Below, in pieces: positions 4,835-16,352 of a stretch of DNA of 64,000 nt. Under the pieces are notes generated by a model. The model made no database searches, was not told the DNA's origin, and saw only the letters and a program-made list of their open reading frames with translations. Location: the NCBI RefSeq assembly GCF_014897705.1, contig NZ_JABUXV010000016.1:1-64000 (forward strand), read 5' to 3'. Each line of letters opens with the position of its first letter. Within the stretch, counting starts at the first letter, position 1. The position numbers were made by a program, and so were the translations under genes. This DNA is from Brachybacterium sp. FME24. GTDB lineage: Bacteria > Actinomycetota > Actinomycetes > Actinomycetales > Dermabacteraceae.

Positions 4835-6106
4835 ATGACCGCGATCGTCCCCACCTCCACCACCGAGCTCGAGTCCGAGGTCCGCAGCTACTCCCGCAGC
4901 TGGCCCACCACCTTCACCCACGCGAAGGGTTCCACCCTGACCGCCGAGGACGGCCGCGAGTACACCGACTTCTTCGCCGGCGCCGGCACCCTGAACTACG
5001 GCCACAACCACCCCGAGCTGAAGAAGGTCGTCATCGACCACTTCCTCGAGGACCGCGTGGTGCACGGCCTGGACATGTTCACCGACGTGCGCCACAAGTT
5101 CCTGGAGACCTTCAACTCGACGATCCTCGAGCCCCGTGGGCTGGACTACAAGGTCGCCTTCCCCGGCCCGGGCGGCACCAACGCCGTCGAGGCGGCCCTC
5201 AAACTGGCCCGCAAGGTCACCGGCCGCGAATCGATCGTGAACTTCACGAACGCCTTCCACGGCATGACCCTGGGCGCCCTGTCCGTCACGGGCAACTCCC
5301 TCAAGCGCGGCGGCGCCGGCATCCCGCTGGTCCACGCCACCCCGATGCCGTTCGACGACTACTTCGGCCAGGTCGTCCCGGACTTCATGTACCTCGAGCG
5401 TCTGCTCACCGACGGCGGCAGCGGACTGAACAAGCCCGCCGCCGTGATCGTCGAGACCGTCCAGGGCGAAGGCGGCATCAACGCGGCCCGCGCCGAGTGG
5501 CTGCGCGGACTCTCCGATCTGTGCACCAAGCACGAGATCCTGCTGATCATCGATGACATCCAGATGGGCTGCGGCCGCACCGGCGGGTTCTTCAGCTTCG
5601 AAGAGGCCGGCATCAAGCCCGACATGGTCACGCTGTCGAAGTCCATCAGCGGCTACGGCCTGCCGATGGCGCTGACCCTGCTCAAGCCGGAGCTCGACAT
5701 CTGGGAGCCCGGCGAGCACAACGGCACCTTCCGTGGCTTCGGCCCCGCCTTCGCGACCGCGACCAAGGCCTTCGAGCTGTTCTGGAGCGACGACGAGCTC
5801 GAGAAGTCGACCATCGCCAAGGGCGCCTACGTCGAGAGCCGCTTCAACCAGATCGCCGCCCGCCACGCCGACGAGCACGAGCTGATCGTCAAGGGCCGCG
5901 GCCTCGCCCGGGGACTCCAGATGCCCACCGGCGAGCTCGCCGGCCAGGTCACCGCGCGCGCCTTCGAGGAGGGCCTGCTGGTGGAGACCTCCGGCCCGTC
6001 CGACGAGGTCGTCAAGCTGCTGCCCGCGCTCACCATCCCCGATGACCAGCTCCGAGGCGGACTGGACATCATCGATCAGGCCGTCGCCGAAGCGCTGTCC
6101 GCCTGA
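4835..6106 (+). CDS. ectB: L-2,4-diaminobutyrate:2-oxoglutarate aminotransferase
   Basis: A 423-aa class III PLP aminotransferase that converts aspartate-4-semialdehyde to L-2,4-diaminobutyrate with glutamate as donor. Visible marks are the phosphate-binding segment GPGGTNAVEAALKLARK at about residues 110-126, the IIDDIQMGCGRTG segment and the Schiff-base lysine at about residue 269 in TLSKSISGYG. Length matches the family. The start is well set by CAGGGAGAGAAC just before the ATG. It is the middle gene of ectABC. Confidence 0.97.
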   Translation: MTAIVPTSTTELESEVRSYSRSWPTTFTHAKGSTLTAEDGREYTDFFAGAGTLNYGHNHPELKKVVIDHFLEDRVVHGLDMFTDVRHKFLETFNSTILEPRGLDYKVAFPGPGGTNAVEAALKLARKVTGRESIVNFTNAFHGMTLGALSVTGNSLKRGGAGIPLVHATPMPFDDYFGQVVPDFMYLERLLTDGGSGLNKPAAVIVETVQGEGGINAARAEWLRGLSDLCTKHEILLIIDDIQMGCGRTGGFFSFEEAGIKPDMVTLSKSISGYGLPMALTLLKPELDIWEPGEHNGTFRGFGPAFATATKAFELFWSDDELEKSTIAKGAYVESRFNQIAARHADEHELIVKGRGLARGLQMPTGELAGQVTARAFEEGLLVETSGPSDEVVKLLPALTIPDDQLRGGLDIIDQAVAEALSA

Positions 6107-6211
6107 GCGACCCCACTCCCCGTCGGCCCGCCCCACCCGGAGCGGGCCGACGTCCCTGAGCGCTCGCTCGGGAGCACGACCCTGCACATCCACGGAGAGG
6201 ACCCCTCACCC

Positions 6212-6604
6212 ATGCTCGTTCGCACCCTCGCGGAGATCGAAGACACCGACGCAGACATCAAGTCGGAGACCTGGCGCAGCAAGCGCATCATCCTGGCCAA
6301 GGAGGGCGTCGGCTTCTCAGTGCACGAGACCACGCTGTACGCCGGGACCGAGAGCATGTTCTGGTACGCCAACCACATCGAGGCAGTGTTCATCACCCAG
6401 GGCGAGGGTGAGATCGAGGACCTGGCCACCGGTGAGAAGCATCAGCTGGCCCCCGGCACCATCTACCTGCTCAACGACCACGACAAGCACATCGTGCGTC
6501 CGCGCACGGAGATCAAGTGCGTGTGCGTGTTCAACCCGCCGGTGACCGGCCGCGAGGTGCACGACGAGAACGGCGTGTACCCGCTGGTGACCGAGGACGC
6601 CTAA
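6212..6604 (+). CDS. ectC: L-ectoine synthase
   Basis: A 130-aa cupin-fold enzyme that closes N-gamma-acetyl-diaminobutyrate to ectoine, a compatible solute. The first block is [19 protein letters not shown] and the cupin core runs through [16 protein letters not shown] and [14 protein letters not shown]. Length is normal for EctC. It lies 105 bases after ectB with a weak GAGAGG upstream. No ectD (hydroxylase) or ask_ect follows: the next feature is a strong terminator and a convergent gene. The pathway here would therefore stop at ectoine unless ectD lies elsewhere. Confidence 0.96.
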
Positions 6605-6657
6605 GCCTCGTGCGCTGACCCCGCCGCACCAGACGGTGCCGGGCGGCGCAGGCCGAA

Positions 6658-6690
6658 GGGCCCACCGGGAGCAACGCTCCTGGTGGGCCC
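6658..6690. terminator. Terminator after ectABC
   Basis: Arms 6658-6672 and 6676-6690 pair over 15 bases with a single G-U wobble and a 3-base loop, followed by TTCAGT. It separates ectC from the convergent GRAM-like gene and probably acts on both strands. Confidence 0.8.
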
Positions 6691-6710
6691 TTCAGTCATA
6701 CGCGGGTGCC

Positions 6711-7073
6711 TCAGCCGACGGCGACTGCCCCGCCGCGCGCCCGATCGATCGCGGCGATCCAGGCCCTGCGACCGGTGACCACGAAGCTGTGCACCGTCCC
6801 GTCGCCCACCGTCGCCTCGATCGAGTTCGGGATCACCGGGAGCTTCCCGAGCAGCTTCGTCCATGCGGGCGTCACCTCGGTGATCGCGCCCACCGGGATC
6901 TGGAACATCGTCGACTGCAGGTTCAGCGCGTGCGGGGCGTGCACCAGGCGCAAGCTGGTCAGGTAGAGCGTCCCGCCCACCGTCTCCGCGCCGCGCTGCA
7001 TGTTCGCCGAGCCTGCCTTCAGCGGGCGCTCCCCCGGTTCGAGATCGACGGGGACCTGCGCAGGATCGGTCAC
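6711..7073 (-). CDS. GRAM/PH-like domain protein
   Basis: A 120-aa soluble protein resembling GRAM or bacterial PH domains: an early LEPGERPLKAGSANM strand, then GTLYLTSLRLVHAP and a final helix near RRAWIAAIDRAR. These folds often bind membranes or protein partners, but the role here is unknown. The start is a GTG at 7073 that overlaps the stop of the upstream membrane-protein gene in a GTGA, so the two are translationally coupled. Confidence 0.7.
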   Translation of the reverse strand: MTDPAQVPVDLEPGERPLKAGSANMQRGAETVGGTLYLTSLRLVHAPHALNLQSTMFQIPVGAITEVTPAWTKLLGKLPVIPNSIEATVGDGTVHSFVVTGRRAWIAAIDRARGGAVAVG

Positions 7074-7660
7074 GATCGTGCCGAGCGCTTGCGCACGATC
7101 AGCAGGATCACGCCGGTCGCGAGGAGCACGAACCCGAGGAAGCCGCCGCCCAGGCCGAGCAGGATCCCGCCGACGGCTCCGAAGATGCCGCCGATGGAGA
7201 CGGGCGGGCCGACCGCGACCGGGGTGCCCGCACAGTCCACGGTGTACTCGCCGGCCTCGTTCGCGGTGATCGAGTCGAAGGACTCCCAGTTCTTCCCGTC
7301 GAGGGAGGTCGAGCTGGTCTGCGCCGTGCCCTCACCGATGGCTTCCTGCGACGGCGCGGTGATGTCGCAGGTGGGCACCTGCGTGCCTTCCTCGACATAG
7401 AACTGCAGCACGTCACCCTCCTCAGCGGTGATCGAGCCCGAGCCGCTGTCGAAGACCTCGATGTCGTTGACGCCCCCGACGGTGCTGGTGATGCCGATCG
7501 CGGCGAGCACGATGCCGGCGATCACGCTGATCAGCAGAATGATGCCGCCGACGATGAGGAGGATGTGGGGAACCTTGCCGAACTTCTTCGGGCCGGGCGC
7601 TGTGCCGGGCGCGTGCTGGGGGCCCTGGGGTGGCATGGGAGCAGAGTGCGGGACGGTCAC
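7070..7660 (-). CDS. Two-helix membrane protein with extracytoplasmic domain, unknown function
   Basis: A 196-aa protein with a Pro-rich cytosolic N-terminus, a hydrophobic helix (HILLIVGGIILLISVIAGIV), an external domain of about 90 residues containing three cysteines, and a Gly-rich C-terminal helix ending in RKRSARS. The GTG at 7660 is selected over the longer frame because AGGAGG lies 6 bases upstream. The charge pattern puts both ends inside. I do not recognise the family. It overlaps the GRAM-like gene by 4 bases, so the two products probably act together at the membrane. Confidence 0.7.
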   Translation of the reverse strand: MTVPHSAPMPPQGPQHAPGTAPGPKKFGKVPHILLIVGGIILLISVIAGIVLAAIGITSTVGGVNDIEVFDSGSGSITAEEGDVLQFYVEEGTQVPTCDITAPSQEAIGEGTAQTSSTSLDGKNWESFDSITANEAGEYTVDCAGTPVAVGPPVSIGGIFGAVGGILLGLGGGFLGFVLLATGVILLIVRKRSARS

Positions 7661-7748
7661 GGGGGGCCTCCTGGGATAGGGCTGCGACCGTTCCAGAATA
7701 GCTCCCGCGGTGCGATTCCCACCCGGCACCGAACCGAGCCGGCCGCCC

Positions 7749-7754
7749 TAGACT
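7749..7754 (+). promoter_or_regulatory. -10 box, leaderless start of the YigZ gene
   Basis: TAGACT, 7 bases before the ATG at 7762, with no ribosome binding site in between. Confidence 0.5.
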
Positions 7755-7761
7755 CGTCCCC

Positions 7762-8415
7762 ATGCCCGATCCTCTCGTCCTCACCGCCGATGTCAGGACG
7801 GAGTTGGTCGAGAAGCGCTCCCGCTTCCTCACCCGTCTGCACCGGGTCACCGCGGTCGAGGAGGCCGAGGTGCTGATCCGGGCCGCGCGTCGTGATCACC
7901 CCGATGCCCGCCACCACTGCACCGCGCTGGTGATCGGCGAGACCGCGCACAGCGCCGAGATGAACCGCTCGAACGACGACGGGGAACCGGCCGGAACTGC
8001 CGGGATGCCGATGCTGCAGTCGCTGCTGCACGCCGAGCTGGTGGACACCCTCGCGATCGTGATCCGCTACTTCGGAGGTATCAAGCTCGGGGCCGGCGGT
8101 CTGGTGCGCGCGTACACCGCAGGCGTCGAGCAGGCGATCGGCGCCGCGACGCTGCTGCGCCGCACCCAGCTGGTGATCGCGGAGCTCGAGGTGCCGCTCG
8201 CGGAGGCCGGCCTCGCCGAGAACGCGGTGCGGATCTGGGCTGCGGCGCAGGCCGCGCAGGTGGAGCCCACGCGGTACTCCTCACGAGGGGCGACCCTGAC
8301 CGTCCTGGTTCCCCCGGAGGATCTGGAGGCGCTGTCGGCCGATACCGCCCGCTGGTCCTCGGGCCGGGTCACTGTGCGGGACGTCGGCCGCCGTACGGCC
8401 GACGTGCCGCGCTGA
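7762..8415 (+). CDS. YigZ/IMPACT family protein
   Basis: A 217-aa member of the YigZ/IMPACT family, whose N-terminal domain has an elongation-factor-like fold and whose eukaryotic relatives modulate translation under amino-acid starvation. The conserved core is visible: RSRFL near residue 20, ARHHCTALVIG near 50, SNDDGEPAGTAGMPML near 72 and the hallmark VIRYFGGIKLGAGGLVRAY near 96. The C-terminal EF-G-like domain is less conserved. Length is usual (about 205-220). The function in bacteria is not settled. It is monocistronic, ending at a hairpin. Confidence 0.92.
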   Translation: MPDPLVLTADVRTELVEKRSRFLTRLHRVTAVEEAEVLIRAARRDHPDARHHCTALVIGETAHSAEMNRSNDDGEPAGTAGMPMLQSLLHAELVDTLAIVIRYFGGIKLGAGGLVRAYTAGVEQAIGAATLLRRTQLVIAELEVPLAEAGLAENAVRIWAAAQAAQVEPTRYSSRGATLTVLVPPEDLEALSADTARWSSGRVTVRDVGRRTADVPR

Positions 8416-8490
8416 GCTGTGCAGGTCCGCGCAGGCCTGTGCAGGCACGGGCTCTGACCCGCAGACACAGCACGATGCAGACACGACGAC

Positions 8491-8521
8491 GGCGCCGCCC
8501 CGGAGTATCCGGAACGGCGCC
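8491..8521. terminator. Hairpin between convergent yigZ and GlsB-type genes
   Basis: Arms 8491-8504 and 8508-8521 pair over 14 bases with two internal mismatches and a 3-base loop. It lies between two convergent stops. Confidence 0.6.
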
Positions 8522-8565
8522 GCCATAGATCAGCCGACGAGCGGCCGAGACGCGATGACCTGAGG

Positions 8566-8862
8566 TCAGGCGCGGGTCTTGCCCTTGTTCTTCGTCACCA
8601 GGCCGTAGATGGCCATGACGATGATGGCGCCGATCACGGCGAGCAGAATGGTGCCGATGCTCCACGGGTTGTCCATGATGCCGCCGATGCCGTCGCCGCC
8701 GAAGAGGCCGCCGATGAATCCACCGACGATCGCGCCGATGACACCGAGAACAATGGTCAGACCGAGGCCCATGCCCTGCTTACCGGGCATGACGGCCCGT
8801 GCGAGGAGGCCGATGATGCCGCCGATGATGATCCAAGAAATGATGAGCCAGAGAAGTCCCAT
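8566..8862 (-). CDS. GlsB/YeaQ/YmgE family stress-response membrane protein
   Basis: A 98-aa protein with three Gly-rich hydrophobic segments. The first, WLIISWIIIGGIIGLLARAV, leads into MPGKQGMGLG, the family hallmark; then comes LGVIGAIVGGFIGGL. Members sit in the cytoplasmic membrane and are linked to general and cell-wall stress. A 16-residue insert near FGGDGIGGIMDNPWS precedes the last helix, and the tail KNKGKTRA is basic. An AGGAA lies before the ATG. Monocistronic. Confidence 0.85.
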   Translation of the reverse strand: MGLLWLIISWIIIGGIIGLLARAVMPGKQGMGLGLTIVLGVIGAIVGGFIGGLFGGDGIGGIMDNPWSIGTILLAVIGAIIVMAIYGLVTKNKGKTRA

Positions 8863-9135
8863 GATCGGAATTCCTATCTATGTGGGGGAAGAGAAAGGGT
8901 GTTGCAACGCTATTGTGCGCTCTGACGCCCCCATATCCGTGGATGCACGCGTCACTGCAGGTCACGCGGACGACCGGCTGGTTTGCCACCGTGAGGTAAT
9001 CGTGACGAGCCGCGCGTGGGGCATGCTTCCGGTGGGAGCGCCGCGCGGGCAGAGGACGGACCCCGAATCGTGGTGGCGTGGACGACATCACGTCGCCATG
9101 TGACGCCTGGACACCTTCCCGTCACCTCGGTGTAC

Positions 9136-9141
9136 GACAAT
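9136..9141 (+). promoter_or_regulatory. -10 box, leaderless start of the Pls gene
   Basis: GACAAT (4 of 6 with TATAAT) ends 6 bases before a GTG at 9148. No Shine-Dalgarno sequence precedes either the GTG or the ATG at 9157, so a leaderless GTG start is the best reading. Confidence 0.4.
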
Positions 9142-9147
9142 CCCCTG

Positions 9148-12100
9148 GTGACCGTCATGCCGCACGCCCTCCTCCCCGAACTCCTCGCTGGTGACCGGGC
9201 TCCCGCCCCGAGCACCCTCGTCGAGATCTTCCGAAGCACCGCCTCCGAGTTCGGGGACGCCCTCGCGGTCGACAACGGTCTCGAACCGCTGACCTACTCC
9301 GAGCTGGACGAGGCGGCCACGGAGCTCGCCGCTCGGCTCGCCGAGCTCGGCGTGGGCCCGGGTGACAAGGTCGGCGTGCGCATCAAGTCCGGCACCACCG
9401 ATCTCTATGTCGCGATCATCGGCATCCTCCTGGCCGGCGGCGCGTACGTCCCCGTCGACGCCGACGATCCCGACGAGCGCGCACGTGTCGTCGTCGAGGA
9501 GTCCGCGGCGGTGGCCCTCGTCGGCAACGGCCTGGTCATCACCCCCACGCCGGCGTCCCGCGCGGCCGTCCCCGGTACGCACCGGGAGGTGGAGCCCGGC
9601 GACGATGCCTGGGTCATCTTCACCTCCGGCTCCACCGGGAAGCCCAAGGGCGTCGCGGTCAGCCACCGGGGCGCCGCCGCCTTCGTCGAGGCCGAGTCCC
9701 GGATGTTCCTGCAGGAGCAGCCGATCGGTCCCGGCGACCGTGTGATGGCCGGCCTCTCCGTCGCCTTCGATGCCAGCTGCGAGGAGATGTGGCTGGCCTG
9801 GGCGTACGGTGCGTGCCTGGTTCCGGCGCCCCGCTCCCTGGTCCGCTCCGGGGTCGACGTCGGCCCGTGGCTGACCGCCAACCGCATCACCATCGTCTCC
9901 ACCGTGCCCACCCTCGTGGCCCTGTGGCCCAACCAGGCCCTGACCGAGGTGCGACTGCTGATCATGGGCGGCGAGGCCTGCCCGCCCGAGCTCGCCCAGC
10001 GGCTCCAGGCCACCGGCCGCGAGGTCTGGAACACCTACGGTCCCACCGAGGCCACCGTCGTCGCCTGCGGGGCGCAGCTGGACGGCACGGACCCGGTGCG
10101 GATCGGTCTCCCCCTGGACGGCTGGGACCTCGCGGTCGTCGACGCCGAGGGGAACCCTGTCGCCGCCGGCGAATCCGGGGAGCTGATCATCGGCGGCATC
10201 GGCCTGGCCCGCTACCTCGACCCCGCCAAGGACGCCGAGAAGTACGCCCCCATGCCGTCCCTGGGCTGGGACCGCGCCTACCGCTCCGGCGACATCGTGC
10301 GCAATGACCCGGCGGGGCTCCTGTTCGCAGGTCGCGCCGACGACCAGATCAAGCTCGGGGGGCGTCGCATCGAGCTCGGCGAGATCGACGACCAGATGCT
10401 CCGCCTGCCCGGTGTGGTCTCCGCCGCCGCCGCCGTCCGCACCACCAAGTCCGGCAACAAGCTGCTGGTGGGCTACCTGACCGTCGACGAGGGATATGAC
10501 TCCGGCGCCGCCTCTGCTCTGCTGCGCGAACGGATGCCCGCCGCCCTGGTGCCCCGCCTGGCCGTCCTCGACGAGCTGCCCACCCGCACCTCCGGCAAGA
10601 TCGATCGGGATGCCCTGCCCTGGCCGCTGCCCACCCGCCGCGAGACATCCACCGCGCTGGCCGGCACGAGTGCCTGGATCGCGGAGATCTGGGCCGAGGT
10701 GCTGGGCGCCGACGTCACCTCTGCGGCCGACGACTTCTTCGACCTCGGCGGCGGCTCCCTGAGCGCCGCGCAGGTGGTCAGCCGTCTCCGCGAGAAGCAC
10801 CCGGACGTCACCGTCGGCGACGTCTACAGCCACCCGCGCATCGCGGGTCTCGCCGCGCACCTCGACCAGCTGGGCGTCGCCACGACCCGCAGCGACCGCA
10901 CGATCCAGCCGCTGCGCACTCGCACCCAGCTGGTCCAACTGCTCGCCCTGGTTCCCCTGCGCGCGCTGGCCGCGATGCGCTGGCTCAGCTGGTTGATGAT
11001 CGCCTCGACGATCGGCGCCGCGCTCACCGAGCTGCCGTGGCTCACGCCGTTCCCCCTGTGGCTGCTGCTCCTCATGGGCGCGGTCTTCCTGCTCCCGCCC
11101 GGACGGATGACTCTGGCTGCAGGCCTGGCCCGGCTGCTCCTGCGCGGAGTGGAACCCGGCAGCCACCCCCGCGGCGGAAGGGTGCACCTGCGGCTCTGGC
11201 TGGCCGAGAAGATCCAGGAGGAGCTCGGGGCCGCGGGCCTCGCCGGAGCCCCGTGGTTCCCCTACTACGCGCGGCTGCTGGGGGCACGGATCGGCCGCGA
11301 CGTCGACCTGCACTCCCTCCCGCCGGTCACCGGCATGCTCACGATCGGTGCAGAGGCCTCGATCGAGCCGGAGGTGGACCTGGCCGGATACTGGATCGAC
11401 GGCGACCGCCTCCGCCTCGGCCGCGTGCGGATCGGCAAGCGGGCCCGGATCGGCGCCCGCAGCACCCTGGGCCCCGGCGCCCTGATCGGGCGGCGGGCCG
11501 AAGTGGCCCCCGGCTCCTCCGTGCTCGGCGAGGTCCCGGACGACGAGTTCTGGTCCGGCTCCCCCGCCGAGCACCAGGCCGCCGCCCGCGGACCCTGGTC
11601 GACCGAGGCTCCGCCGAAGGGACGGCTCTGGCTGCTCGTCTACGGCCTGGTCGCCGTGCTGATCGCGTCGCTGCCTGGCGTCTCCCTGCTGGTCGGTGCC
11701 GCGGTGCTCCTGCCGGCCGTGGCGGGCACGGCCACTCTGGCGGCGGCGCTCCTGGCCGCGCTGGTGTGGCTGCCGCTGGCGGCCCTGGCCGCGTTCGGGG
11801 CCCTGATGCTGATGGTGCTCGCCCTCACCCGACTCTTCGCTCTCGGCATCCGCCCGGGCCACCGCCCGGTGCGCTCCGCCGGAGGAGTCTGCATCTGGGG
11901 CACGCTGCGGCTGCTCGACGAGTCCCGCACCTGGCTGTTCCCGATCTACTCCGGCGCCCTCACCCCGACCTGGCTGCGCCTGCTCGGAGCCCGGATCGGC
12001 AAGGGCGTGGAGGCCTCCACGGTGCTCCTGATCCCGAGCCTGGTCCACGTGAACGACCACGCCTTCCTCGCCGATGACACCCTGGTCGGCTCCTACGAGC

Positions 12101-13026
12101 TCGGCGGCGGCTGGATACGCGTGGAACGGGTCAAGGTGGGCAAGCGCGCCTTCGTGGGCAACTCCGGGATGCTCGCCCCTGGCCGCAAGGTCCCCAAGCA
12201 GTCCCTGGTCGCCGTGCTCTCCGCTGCCCCGCGCCGCACCGCTGCGAAGGCCGGCACCTCCTGGCTGGGCAGCCCGCCGCGCAAGCTGCGGCGCACCCAG
12301 GACGACCAGGACGAGGGCCGCACCTACGATCCGCCGATGCGACTCCACGTGTACCGCGGCCTGGTCGAGACCTGCCGCATCCTCCCCCTGCTGCTGTCCG
12401 CGGCGCTGCAGGTCGCGGTCGGCGCGACCCTGCTCTGGCTGCTCACCCTCACGGATCTCGGGGTCGTGCTCGCCCTGGTCCTCGGCGGGCCGGTGCTGAT
12501 GGCAGCCAGCCTCGTCGCCGCACTCATCACGGTGGCCGCGAAGTGGACGATCATCGGGCGCCACACAGCCGGCGAGCACGCCCTGTGGACGTCCTTCGTG
12601 TGGCGCAGCGAGCTGGCCGACACCTTCACCGAGGTCCTCGCCGCCCCCTGGTTCGCCCAGGTCACCTCCGGCACCGTCGCACTGAACGCCTGGCTGCGAC
12701 TGCTCGGCGCCAAGATCGGGCCAGGCGTGTGGTGCGAGTCGTACTGGCTTCCCGAGACGGACCTGGTCGAGCTCGGCGCCGGATCGACCGTCAATCGTGG
12801 CTGTGTGGTCCAGACCCACCTCTTCCACGACCGCGTGCTCAGCATGGATACCGTCGAGCTCGGTGCGGGCGCGACCTTGGGACCCGGTAGCGTCATCCTT
12901 CCGGCCGCGCGCATCGATCGCCACGCGACGGTCGGACCGGTCTCGTTGGTCATGCGAGGTGAGAGTGTTCCCTCGGGAACACGGTGGACAGGAAACCCGA
13001 TCGGCCCGTGGGAGGACGACGAATGA
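9148..13026 (+). CDS. Pls-type (poly-epsilon-lysine synthetase-like) single-module membrane NRPS
   Basis: A 1292-aa protein with the architecture of Pls: an adenylation domain (about 20-480; TSGSTGKPKG at about 158-167, YGPTEATVV, SGKIDRD), a thiolation domain (LGGGS, serine about 537), then three repeats of a two-helix membrane segment plus a left-handed-beta-helix-like catalytic domain (membrane about 597-651, 825-901 and 1075-1135; C1 about 678-811, C2 about 915-1028, C3 about 1141-1290). Pls enzymes join one amino acid type into a homopolymer at the membrane. A by-eye alignment to GrsA gives the specificity residues D-A-E-S-I-G-T-V-V-K, close to lysine codes. The start is GTG 9148 (leaderless) or ATG 9157. 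It is coupled by ATGA to the next gene and needs a phosphopantetheinyl transferase, encoded just downstream. Confidence 0.9.
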   Translation: MTVMPHALLPELLAGDRAPAPSTLVEIFRSTASEFGDALAVDNGLEPLTYSELDEAATELAARLAELGVGPGDKVGVRIKSGTTDLYVAIIGILLAGGAYVPVDADDPDERARVVVEESAAVALVGNGLVITPTPASRAAVPGTHREVEPGDDAWVIFTSGSTGKPKGVAVSHRGAAAFVEAESRMFLQEQPIGPGDRVMAGLSVAFDASCEEMWLAWAYGACLVPAPRSLVRSGVDVGPWLTANRITIVSTVPTLVALWPNQALTEVRLLIMGGEACPPELAQRLQATGREVWNTYGPTEATVVACGAQLDGTDPVRIGLPLDGWDLAVVDAEGNPVAAGESGELIIGGIGLARYLDPAKDAEKYAPMPSLGWDRAYRSGDIVRNDPAGLLFAGRADDQIKLGGRRIELGEIDDQMLRLPGVVSAAAAVRTTKSGNKLLVGYLTVDEGYDSGAASALLRERMPAALVPRLAVLDELPTRTSGKIDRDALPWPLPTRRETSTALAGTSAWIAEIWAEVLGADVTSAADDFFDLGGGSLSAAQVVSRLREKHPDVTVGDVYSHPRIAGLAAHLDQLGVATTRSDRTIQPLRTRTQLVQLLALVPLRALAAMRWLSWLMIASTIGAALTELPWLTPFPLWLLLLMGAVFLLPPGRMTLAAGLARLLLRGVEPGSHPRGGRVHLRLWLAEKIQEELGAAGLAGAPWFPYYARLLGARIGRDVDLHSLPPVTGMLTIGAEASIEPEVDLAGYWIDGDRLRLGRVRIGKRARIGARSTLGPGALIGRRAEVAPGSSVLGEVPDDEFWSGSPAEHQAAARGPWSTEAPPKGRLWLLVYGLVAVLIASLPGVSLLVGAAVLLPAVAGTATLAAALLAALVWLPLAALAAFGALMLMVLALTRLFALGIRPGHRPVRSAGGVCIWGTLRLLDESRTWLFPIYSGALTPTWLRLLGARIGKGVEASTVLLIPSLVHVNDHAFLADDTLVGSYELGGGWIRVERVKVGKRAFVGNSGMLAPGRKVPKQSLVAVLSAAPRRTAAKAGTSWLGSPPRKLRRTQDDQDEGRTYDPPMRLHVYRGLVETCRILPLLLSAALQVAVGATLLWLLTLTDLGVVLALVLGGPVLMAASLVAALITVAAKWTIIGRHTAGEHALWTSFVWRSELADTFTEVLAAPWFAQVTSGTVALNAWLRLLGAKIGPGVWCESYWLPETDLVELGAGSTVNRGCVVQTHLFHDRVLSMDTVELGAGATLGPGSVILPAARIDRHATVGPVSLVMRGESVPSGTRWTGNPIGPWEDDE

Positions 13027-14408
13027 GCAGCACGACGACACCCTCCGCGAATTCCGCGAAGGCCGGGAGCACCAGCGGCAGCACCGCGCCCCCGGCAGGC
13101 GACGGGAGTGCTGGGAGTGATCCCTACGTGCCGGGTCACGGCGACCCGTCCTACGAGGTGCTCCACTACGACCTGAGCCTCCTCTACAAGATCGATTCCA
13201 ACCGCCTCGACGGCGACGCCACCCTGCGCTGCCGTGCACTCAGGGAGACAGACGTCCTCCGTCTGGACCTGCACACGTTGCGGGCCCAGAAGGTGTTCGT
13301 CGGTGGTCGCCCCCAGAAGGTCACGCAGCACAAGGACCGGATCGTGATCCGGTATCCGGTGCGCGCCGGCGACGAGTTCGAGATCCGGGTGAAGTACGCC
13401 GGCAAACCCCGCCAGGTGCCCTCGCGAGTGCACGGCGCCGCTGGCTGGGAAGAGCTGACCGACGGGGTCATCGTCGCCGCACAGCCGCACGGCGCCCCGT
13501 CCTGGTTCCCGTGCAACGACCGCCCCGACAACAAGGCGAGCTACTCCCTCGCCGTCGCCGCGCCGCCGGACTACTACGTCGCCGTGGCCGGGGAGCTCGT
13601 CGGCACTCGACGCAGCGGCGCCCTGGTGACCTGGACCTACGAGCAGACCGCGCCGATGCCCACCTATCTCGCGACCGTTCAGATCGGGCGCTACGAGGTG
13701 CTCGAGCAGCTGGGCGCCCCGGTTCCGGTACGCACCATCGCGTCGCCCAAGCTGGACGTCGAGGAGTTCGCGGCATCCTTCGGCCGGCAGCCGGAGATGA
13801 TCAGCTTCTTCAGCCGTCTCTTCGGCGACTATCCCTTCTCCTCGTACACCGCGGTCATCACCGAGGACGACCTCGAGATCCCGCTGGAGTCCCAGGGCCT
13901 GTCCACCTTCGGCCTGAACTTCGTCGACTCGGACTGGGACGCCGTGCGCCTGGTCGCCCACGAGATCTCCCACCAGTGGTTCGGCAACGCGGTGACACTG
14001 CGCCGGTGGCAGGACATCTGGCTGCACGAGGGCTTCGCCTGCTACAGCGAGTGGCTGTGGGCCGAGGAATCCGACGTCTCGACCGTCCAGGACCAGGTGG
14101 ACGAGCACCACGCATTGCTCGCCGGCCTCCCGCAGGACCTGCTGCTGGCAGATCCCGGGGCGAAGCTCATGTTCGATGACCGCCTCTACAAGCGCGGCGC
14201 CCTGACCGCGCACGCCCTGCGGGTGCGGGTGGGCGATGAGACGTTCTTCGAGATCCTGCGCACCTGGGTCGCAGAGCACCAGGGCGCAAACGTCACCACC
14301 GAGATGTTCGTCGAGCACGCTGCCGGCCTCGCCGGTGAGGATCTCGATGACCTGTTCGGAGCCTGGCTGTTCTCGACCGCGCTGCCCGCGTGCCCACGCG
14401 GCTCCTGA
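13023..14408 (+). CDS. M1 family zinc metallopeptidase (aminopeptidase)
   Basis: A 461-aa short M1 peptidase. The zinc site HEISH is at residues 313-317 with the third ligand E336 in WLHEGF. An N-terminal beta domain holds about residues 30-200. The substrate-binding loop reads LESQG where aminopeptidase N has GAMEN, as in other short actinobacterial M1 proteins. No signal peptide is seen; residues 1-35 are Ser/Thr/Gly-rich. Its ATG overlaps the Pls stop in an ATGA, so production is tied to the synthetase. Known poly-lysine producers carry an M1-like aminopeptidase that degrades the polymer, so trimming or self-protection is a reasonable inference. Confidence 0.93.
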   Translation: MSSTTTPSANSAKAGSTSGSTAPPAGDGSAGSDPYVPGHGDPSYEVLHYDLSLLYKIDSNRLDGDATLRCRALRETDVLRLDLHTLRAQKVFVGGRPQKVTQHKDRIVIRYPVRAGDEFEIRVKYAGKPRQVPSRVHGAAGWEELTDGVIVAAQPHGAPSWFPCNDRPDNKASYSLAVAAPPDYYVAVAGELVGTRRSGALVTWTYEQTAPMPTYLATVQIGRYEVLEQLGAPVPVRTIASPKLDVEEFAASFGRQPEMISFFSRLFGDYPFSSYTAVITEDDLEIPLESQGLSTFGLNFVDSDWDAVRLVAHEISHQWFGNAVTLRRWQDIWLHEGFACYSEWLWAEESDVSTVQDQVDEHHALLAGLPQDLLLADPGAKLMFDDRLYKRGALTAHALRVRVGDETFFEILRTWVAEHQGANVTTEMFVEHAAGLAGEDLDDLFGAWLFSTALPACPRGS

Positions 14409-14418
14409 GCACCCGAGC

Positions 14419-14961
14419 TCACTGCAGCGCGTACGCCGCGCAGTACCCCTGGGGCGCCGGCACGTCGACGACCTCGAAGTCGGCGACCCGGATCGAGCTC
14501 ATCGGGGTATCGAGCCCGTCACCGAGCAGCTTGAGGATCGCCTCCTTGCGGCACCACATCGCCGCGCGCTCCTGCGCGGTGCTCGCGTGGCCGGACTCGC
14601 TGGGGTGCAGCACCAGGCCAGGGTCCCAGCCGGCAGCGACCGCCGCGACCGATTCGATGTCGACACCGATCCGCGCCGTGCCGCTCACGGCGGTGAGCAG
14701 GTGCGGCCCGCAGCGCGAGAGACTCACCCCGACCTCATCCCGTCGGCCGATCGCGCGCGCCCAGGGCCTGCCGTGCGCGGCGGAGCCGCAGCGCCCGCAG
14801 GACCTGCCCACGCGGACCTCGGCCGCCGGAGCCCCGAGCAGCTCCGCGACACGGCGGCGCAGGATCACGTCGGCGTCCTCTCCGACGCGGTGACGCTGGA
14901 TCGGTGACACCACGCTCCACGTCCTCTCGTCGGCCTCGGCATCGGTGATCCAGGGCTCCAT
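14419..14961 (-). CDS. Sfp-type 4'-phosphopantetheinyl transferase
   Basis: A 180-aa enzyme that would move phosphopantetheine from CoA to the carrier-domain serine of the Pls protein. The two signature motifs are present: GVDIE at about residues 95-99 and WCRKEAILK at about 136-144. The conserved early CGRCG-x-HGRP block is also seen. The ATG at 14961 is preferred over one at 15030 because a perfect 15-bp hairpin, best read as the nrdF terminator, lies between them. It converges on the M1 gene with only 10 bases between stops. Placement beside the only NRPS in view implies a dedicated partner. Confidence 0.88.
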   Translation of the reverse strand: MEPWITDAEADERTWSVVSPIQRHRVGEDADVILRRRVAELLGAPAAEVRVGRSCGRCGSAAHGRPWARAIGRRDEVGVSLSRCGPHLLTAVSGTARIGVDIESVAAVAAGWDPGLVLHPSESGHASTAQERAAMWCRKEAILKLLGDGLDTPMSSIRVADFEVVDVPAPQGYCAAYALQ

Positions 14962-14978
14962 CGGGTCCAGGAGAGACC

Positions 14979-15010
14979 GGAGGGGCCGGGCGAGATCGCC
15001 CGGCCCCTCC
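14979..15010 (-). terminator. Terminator after nrdF
   Basis: Arms 14979-14993 and 14996-15010 are perfectly complementary over 15 bases. It lies 46 bases after the nrdF stop and before the transferase start at 14961. Confidence 0.65.
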
Positions 15011-15055
15011 GACGTGCTGCGGGAAGTCATGCTCTCGGCATGCCTCCCGGCGGAC

Positions 15056-16352
<1,297 letters not shown>

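What the first reader, a model, noticed from the sequence alone, without database searches (positions are those of the whole stretch)
9148..14961. Candidate poly-lysine-type homopolymer locus: Pls synthetase + M1 peptidase + phosphopantetheinyl transferase
The sequence shows an A-T module followed by three membrane/LbH-like repeats, the layout of epsilon-poly-L-lysine synthetase. Aligning the A domain to GrsA by eye gives specificity residues D-A-E-S-I-G-T-V-V plus the invariant K, which as I recall is nearly the lysine code of bacitracin and poly-lysine synthetases. An M1 peptidase is coupled to it by ATGA and a dedicated Sfp-type transferase lies just beyond. Synthetase, degrader/protector and activating enzyme in one block is a compact biosynthetic system. 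A product from this lineage is not known to me.
Basis: partly seen in the sequence, partly recalled or inferred. Interest (0 to 1): 0.85.

Follow-up and report, generated by a model that had tools for sequence, protein, structure and literature searches.

The report
Polylysine operon with its activating enzyme
This looks like a standard epsilon-poly-L-lysine synthetase gene with its usual partner peptidase, a well-known antimicrobial system; the one modest addition is that the enzyme that should switch the synthetase on is encoded right beside it and comes and goes with it among related species.

Summary
The window carries an open Pls-type NRPS gene, an M1 peptidase gene overlapping it by ATGA, and a convergent Sfp-type phosphopantetheinyl transferase (PPTase) gene. 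The A-domain pocket is DAESIGTVVK, identical at all ten positions to the solved S. albulus Pls A domain (295 of 475 residues identical). The pls-M1 pair with a 4-bp overlap is the published pls-pldII operon, and Pls homologues are already reported across coryneform actinobacteria. So this is a new member of a known kind, most likely making epsilon-poly-L-lysine, with the peptidase as degrading/self-protecting enzyme; product and activities were not tested. Only for the third gene did I find no report: in the window's genus a close homologue occurs in 16 of 16 pls-positive genomes and 0 of 22 negatives. The three genes lie between yigZ and nrdF in 13 of 14 assessable positives; in 19 of 19 assessable negatives that gap is 0.6-3.4 kb. 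A convergent homologue also flanks pls-pld in 11 of 16 Propionibacteriales and 8 of 11 Micrococcales loci, but in 0 of 42 Mycobacteriales. Interest is low to moderate.

The parts
9157..13026 (+). pls: epsilon-poly-L-lysine synthetase-type NRPS (A, T, membrane C-terminal domain with three repeats); start may also be GTG 9148 or GTG 9130
   Evidence: TIGR02353 704.7 bits; best PDB match 7WEW, S. albulus Pls A domain, 619.8 bits; 295 of 475 aligned residues identical and 10 of 10 pocket residues equal
13023..14408 (+). pldII-like M1 zinc peptidase, ATGA overlap with pls; HEISH at 13959-13973
   Evidence: PF01433 and PF17900; zinc motif kept; same position and 4-bp overlap as S. albulus pldII (PMC4361855); a homologue lies downstream of pls on the same strand in 80 of 80 named loci, mostly adjacent, up to about 2.1 kb away in L026
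14419..15030 (-). Sfp-type 4'-phosphopantetheinyl transferase, convergent with the peptidase gene and 25 bp downstream of nrdF on the same strand
   Evidence: PF01648 (19 of 20 aligned homologues match); AlphaFold model mean pLDDT 85.4, top Foldseek hit Sfp 4MRT, E 5.5e-8; one of two PF01648 hits in the genome
7762..8415 (+). left flank of the cassette: yigZ/UPF0029 gene, conserved edge of the site
15056..16117 (-). right flank of the cassette: ribonucleotide reductase small chain (nrdF), conserved edge of the site; start approximate

Best explanation
A pls-pldII operon with its own PPTase. The A domain adenylates L-lysine and loads it on the T domain, which the neighbouring Sfp-type PPTase has converted to the holo form. 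The membrane-embedded C-terminal domain joins alpha-carboxyl to epsilon-amino groups of successive lysines and releases epsilon-poly-L-lysine outside the cell. The translationally coupled M1 peptidase, PldII-like, trims or degrades the polymer near the membrane and protects the producer. Shown here: domains, pocket, gene overlap, PPTase fold (predicted), co-occurrence and the fixed site. Inferred by homology: lysine as substrate, the isopeptide product, secretion, degradation, and which carrier the PPTase acts on.
For: Family: TIGR02353 far above cut-off. Substrate: the A domain scores 619.8 bits to S. albulus Pls (7WEW) and 191.7 or less to the PosA structures 8G95-8G98; code DAESIGTVVK as in 7WEW, and in all 95 readable of 96 relatives besides the window's own copy L084 (the set was chosen by similarity). 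PosA has DMEHNGTVSK and the beta-lysine enzyme DGESISVVNK (PMC10522769 passages). Operon: same peptidase, place and overlap as S. albulus; pldII repression lowers tolerance to epsilon-PL in S. albulus (PMC9223678 passages). Carrier motif GGGS at 10747. PPTase: the genome gives two PF01648 hits and two PF00550 hits, Pls and an 85-residue frame; the close homologue (E <= 1e-33) occurs in 16 of 16 pls-positive and 0 of 22 pls-negative genomes of the genus, within 0.4 kb of pld in 15 of the 16 and 5.6 kb away in G016. Of 19 plasmid records with a relative, 9 carry a Pls or Pls/PosA name under the match; the rest have no name there, no annotation, or (one) a generic one.
Against: No product, enzyme activity or expression was measured. 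C. variabile with a working pls made no detectable epsilon-PL in culture, nor did C. glutamicum carrying the gene; product appeared only in S. coelicolor (PMC8117764), so the operon may be silent. No sigma-70-like promoter was found in 8400-15200, though actinobacterial promoters often escape that scan. PPTase linkage is not universal: 0 of 42 Mycobacteriales loci and not beside pls in G044 of the same family, nor in three plasmid loci, L126-L128. Four of 22 pls-negative genomes hold a more distant homologue (40-47% identity). Three of the 22 negatives are under 90% complete. PF00550 may miss carrier domains such as those in type I fatty acid synthase, so 'dedicated' is by elimination only. 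In G019 pls lies elsewhere, and a 5.8-kb gap between yigZ and nrdF holds no pls.
Confidence: 0.92

Rival explanations
1. The synthetase makes another cationic homopolymer (poly-Dab, poly-ornithine or poly-beta-lysine), for instance fed with Dab by the nearby ectB-type aminotransferase at 4835-6106.
For: A class-III aminotransferase of ectB type and ectC lie about 2.5-4 kb upstream, and homologues lie upstream of pls in 7 of 15 fetched related stretches; Dab is an ectoine intermediate (general knowledge).
Against: The pocket equals that of S. albulus Pls at 10 of 10 positions. In PMC10522769 (passages) alanine at position 2 goes with lysine, phenylalanine with Dap/Dab and methionine with ornithine. 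The two genes look like part of an ordinary ectoine operon; in the other 8 of 15 stretches they were not found, several of which are too short to tell.
Confidence: 0.04
2. The PPTase is a general enzyme that happens to sit downstream of nrdF, not a part of the pls system.
For: It lies on the strand of nrdF, 25 bp behind it, and not in the pls-pld transcript. Mycobacteriales loci (0 of 42) and the Streptomyces, Kitasatospora and M. intracellulare plasmid loci (0 of 3) lack it beside pls.
Against: It is present in 16 of 16 pls-positive and 0 of 22 pls-negative genomes, while nrdF is found in 19 of those 22 negatives. No other NRPS-type carrier was found in the genome.
Confidence: 0.12
3. The operon is silent or decayed and makes no polymer.
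For: C. variabile made no detectable epsilon-PL natively (PMC8117764). One relative, G028, has pls in two pieces and an in-frame TGA in its PPTase hit, which may also be sequencing error (the genome is 85% complete).
Against: All three window frames are open; pocket, carrier serine, zinc motif and PPTase motifs are kept.
Confidence: 0.15

Closest known systems
pls-pldII operon of Streptomyces albulus (epsilon-poly-L-lysine)
   Same: Domain order, ten-residue pocket, downstream M1 peptidase with a 4-bp overlap
   Different: 62% identity in the A domain; the full S. albulus protein was not compared, but a Streptomyces plasmid Pls is 52% identical over 1294 columns. A PPTase gene lies beside it here; none was found in the 15.8-kb stretch around that plasmid operon
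Pls of Corynebacterium variabile and other coryneform actinobacteria (PMC8117764)
   Same: Same family, peptidase context and reported lysine pocket
   Different: The paper's main text has no mention of Brachybacterium, Nocardioides or 'phosphopantetheinyl'; its figures and data sets were not seen
PosA, delta-poly-L-ornithine synthetase of Acinetobacter baumannii (PMC10522769)
   Same: Same NRPS_term_dom family; similar predicted C-terminal layout
   Different: Pocket DMEHNGTVSK, single-gene operon
Sfp-type phosphopantetheinyl transferases (Sfp, human PPTase, PptT)
   Same: Predicted fold
   Different: No PDB sequence matched by phmmer at E <= 0.01; gene linked to pls in some lineages

Membership tests
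epsilon-poly-L-lysine synthetase (Pls) | A-T-NRPS_term_dom architecture without C or TE domains | tested here: met
epsilon-poly-L-lysine synthetase (Pls) | Lysine pocket code of characterised Pls | tested here: met
   10 of 10 residues equal to 7WEW
epsilon-poly-L-lysine synthetase (Pls) | Three tandem repeats in the C-terminal domain | tested here: met
   pairwise scores 119-127 against at most 61 in shuffles; layout in the model
epsilon-poly-L-lysine synthetase (Pls) | Six transmembrane helices | tested here: inconclusive
   hydrophobic stretches at P0001 643-671, 838-917 and 1091-1151 fit three pairs, but no topology predictor was run
epsilon-poly-L-lysine synthetase (Pls) | Product is epsilon-linked L-lysine homopolymer | not testable with these tools
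   needs assay
[quoted passage not shown]
   same overlap reported for S. albulus
[quoted passage not shown]
   needs assay
Sfp-type phosphopantetheinyl transferase | PF01648 match and Sfp-like fold | tested here: met
   D124, E126, W159, E163, K167 invariant and K162 nearly so in 20 rows
Sfp-type phosphopantetheinyl transferase | Modifies the Pls carrier domain | not testable with these tools
   inferred from pairing only
PosA / PDAP / PDAB / poly-beta-lysine synthetases | Their own pocket codes | tested here: not met
   position 2 is Ala, not Met, Phe or Gly

The most novel reading that the evidence does not exclude
In Micrococcales and Propionibacteriales the poly-lysine system is a self-sufficient three-gene unit: synthetase, peptidase and a dedicated PPTase that is gained and lost with it, in the window's genus mostly at one chromosomal site, so that species without other NRPS machinery can make the polymer.
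Probability: 0.6. Interest if true: 0.3.

Novelty: new member of a known kind. Interest (0 to 1): 0.22.

Why it matters
It extends a commercially used antimicrobial polymer system to another actinobacterial genus, and suggests which transferase to co-express when such genes are moved to another host. Published C. variabile Pls gave no product in C. glutamicum although the protein was detected there (PMC8117764); poor carrier activation is one possible reason. That link is my inference, not the authors', and C. glutamicum has a PPTase of its own (recalled).

Tried and rejected
Considered and rejected: poly-Dab from the nearby ectB-type gene (the pocket speaks against it); poly-ornithine or poly-beta-lysine (position 2 differs); a frame artefact (family scores far above cut-off). 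Led nowhere: promoter/terminator scan (0 promoter-like sites, 1 terminator-like site against 0.5 in shuffles); phmmer of the PPTase against the PDB (0 hits); Foldseek of the C-terminal model (only weak beta-helix matches). TIGR02353 at E <= 0.001 is unspecific: it rings in 45 of 47 family genomes and 13 of 14 control genomes, so I used the curated cut-off, reached in 16 of 47 and 1 of 14. The treekit rank for L041 (Chroococcidiopsidales) is a name-parsing error: its title says Rhodococcus; it lacks the PPTase, and counting it would give Mycobacteriales 0 of 43. The Pls tree is a FastTree with long branches L126 and L059, used only for coarse placement: the window sits with 14 same-genus rows (support 100), next to three Nocardioides and two Ornithinimicrobium rows.

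Rows dropped before counts: one search left out L013, L019, L036, L065 and L069 of 80 for under 3 kb downstream (L069 does have the PPTase). One search left out 5 of 38 genomes without both flanks on one contig. The PPTase scan used a profile grown from the window's own PPTase at E <= 1e-5 and can miss divergent ones.

Full report
What is there. On the plus strand a gene at about 9157-13026 (GTG 9148 or 9130 are other possible starts) encodes an A domain, a T domain and a full-length NRPS_term_dom: TIGR02353, 'Pls/PosA family non-ribosomal peptide synthetase', 704.7 bits against a cut-off of 423.1. Its stop overlaps the ATG of an M1 peptidase gene by ATGA (13023-14408). Ten bases further, on the other strand, ends a PPTase gene (14419-15030). 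The C-terminal domain holds three repeats that align pairwise at 119-127, against at most 61 in 200 shuffles of each pair; its model (mean pLDDT 77.2, pTM 0.83, 23 rows) shows a repeated helix/beta-helix layout like the one described for PosA (PMC10522769 passages). Its Foldseek hits are mostly beta-helix acyltransferases, gamma carbonic anhydrases and related complex I chains, but none reaches E 0.001.

Substrate. The best PDB match is the A domain of S. albulus Pls, 7WEW, at 619.8 bits; the PosA structures score at most 191.7. Over the printed alignment 295 of 475 residues are identical, and the ten pocket positions are the same: D A E S I G T V V K. The GrsA numbering of the pocket was placed by recalled core motifs; the 7WEW comparison needs only the columns. 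Of 97 loci with pls, one (L084) is the window's own copy; of the 96 relatives, 95 had a readable pocket and all 95 have this code. They were chosen by similarity, so this is not an independent sample. PMC10522769 (passages) ties Ala at position 2 to lysine, Met to ornithine and Phe to Dap/Dab.

Operon. A peptidase homologue lies downstream of pls in 80 of 80 named loci. PMC4361855 (passages) says that pldII of S. albulus overlaps pls by 4 bp and forms an operon with it; PMC8117764 (parts 1 and 2 of 4, and passages) reports the same operon context in Corynebacterium variabile and identifies its product by heterologous expression. PMC9223678 (passages) gives PldII a self-protection role. The motif HExxH (13959-13973) and the downstream WLHEG are kept in the window. 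The usual GxMEN motif (recalled) reads LESQG here (13884-13898), and LEAQG (28), IEAQG (21) or LESQG (14) in most of 98 aligned rows, the window included. One plasmid relative, from M. intracellulare, has pls with no peptidase ORF found in the fetched stretch.

PPTase. Its model (mean pLDDT 85.4) has Sfp bound to a carrier protein as top match (E 5.5e-8, TM 0.53 by query length), although phmmer found no PDB sequence. In the window's genome PF01648 gives two hits and PF00550 two hits at E <= 0.001, so by elimination this enzyme serves Pls and the other one the small ACP. In the genus, pls is present in 16 of 38 genomes (15 over the cut-off, and G028 in two pieces). The close PPTase (E <= 1e-33) is in the same 16 and in none of the other 22; four of those 22 hold a weaker homologue (40-47% identity), and three of the 22 are under 90% complete. 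It lies within 0.4 kb of pld in 15 of the 16, and 5.6 kb away in G016. In 13 of 14 positives with both flanks on one contig, pls, pld and PPTase lie between yigZ and nrdF; G019 is the exception. In 19 of 19 such negatives the gap is 640-3443 bp and no pls was found in the genome. Among 75 named loci with at least 3 kb downstream, a convergent homologue follows pld in 11 of 16 Propionibacteriales, 8 of 11 Micrococcales, 1 of 3 unranked, 0 of 42 Mycobacteriales and 0 of 3 others. G044, of the same family but another genus, has pls-pld without it; its only hit is weak and on another contig. The Streptomyces, Kitasatospora and M. intracellulare plasmid loci have none within about 6 kb. Mycobacteriales and Streptomyces have other PPTases elsewhere (general knowledge), which may be why they do without a linked one.

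How it works, most likely. The PPTase arms the T domain; the A domain loads L-lysine; the membrane domain polymerises it through epsilon-amino groups and exports it; PldII cleaves polymer near the membrane. Only gene content, residues, predicted folds and co-occurrence are shown here.

Novelty. Pls and its operon are known; the lineage is one more. For the PPTase linkage I found no report in the held open-access library: 57 papers, 12 listed and seen as listing; 134 papers, 10 listed and seen as listing; the one listed paper on S. albulus that names PPTases does so in a genome-wide enrichment, not at pls (PMC4361855); and the main texts of PMC8117764 and PMC10522769 hold no 'phosphopantetheinyl'. 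Most subscription papers are not in that library, and supplements and figures were not seen. The genus was not identified.

Noticed in passing
window 4835-6604: ectB-type aminotransferase and ectC ectoine synthase upstream of the pls cassette; homologues lie upstream of pls in 7 of 15 fetched related stretches.
   Followed up: partly
window 8566-8862, minus strand: Small glycine-rich membrane protein of 98 residues resembling the GlsB/YeaQ/YmgE family (recalled, not searched), between yigZ and pls.
   Followed up: no
L122 (G028), around 6394-10808: pls is in two pieces and the PPTase hit has one in-frame TGA; decay or sequencing error.
   Followed up: no
L128 (Mycobacterium intracellulare plasmid), 5878-9858: A Pls/PosA-family gene without the M1 peptidase, among large NRPS genes and PE/PPE genes.
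   Followed up: no
window 13884-13898: The peptidase family of this operon mostly reads xE(A/S)Q(G) where typical M1 aminopeptidases have GxMEN (recalled); possibly linked to cutting isopeptide polymers.
   Followed up: partly
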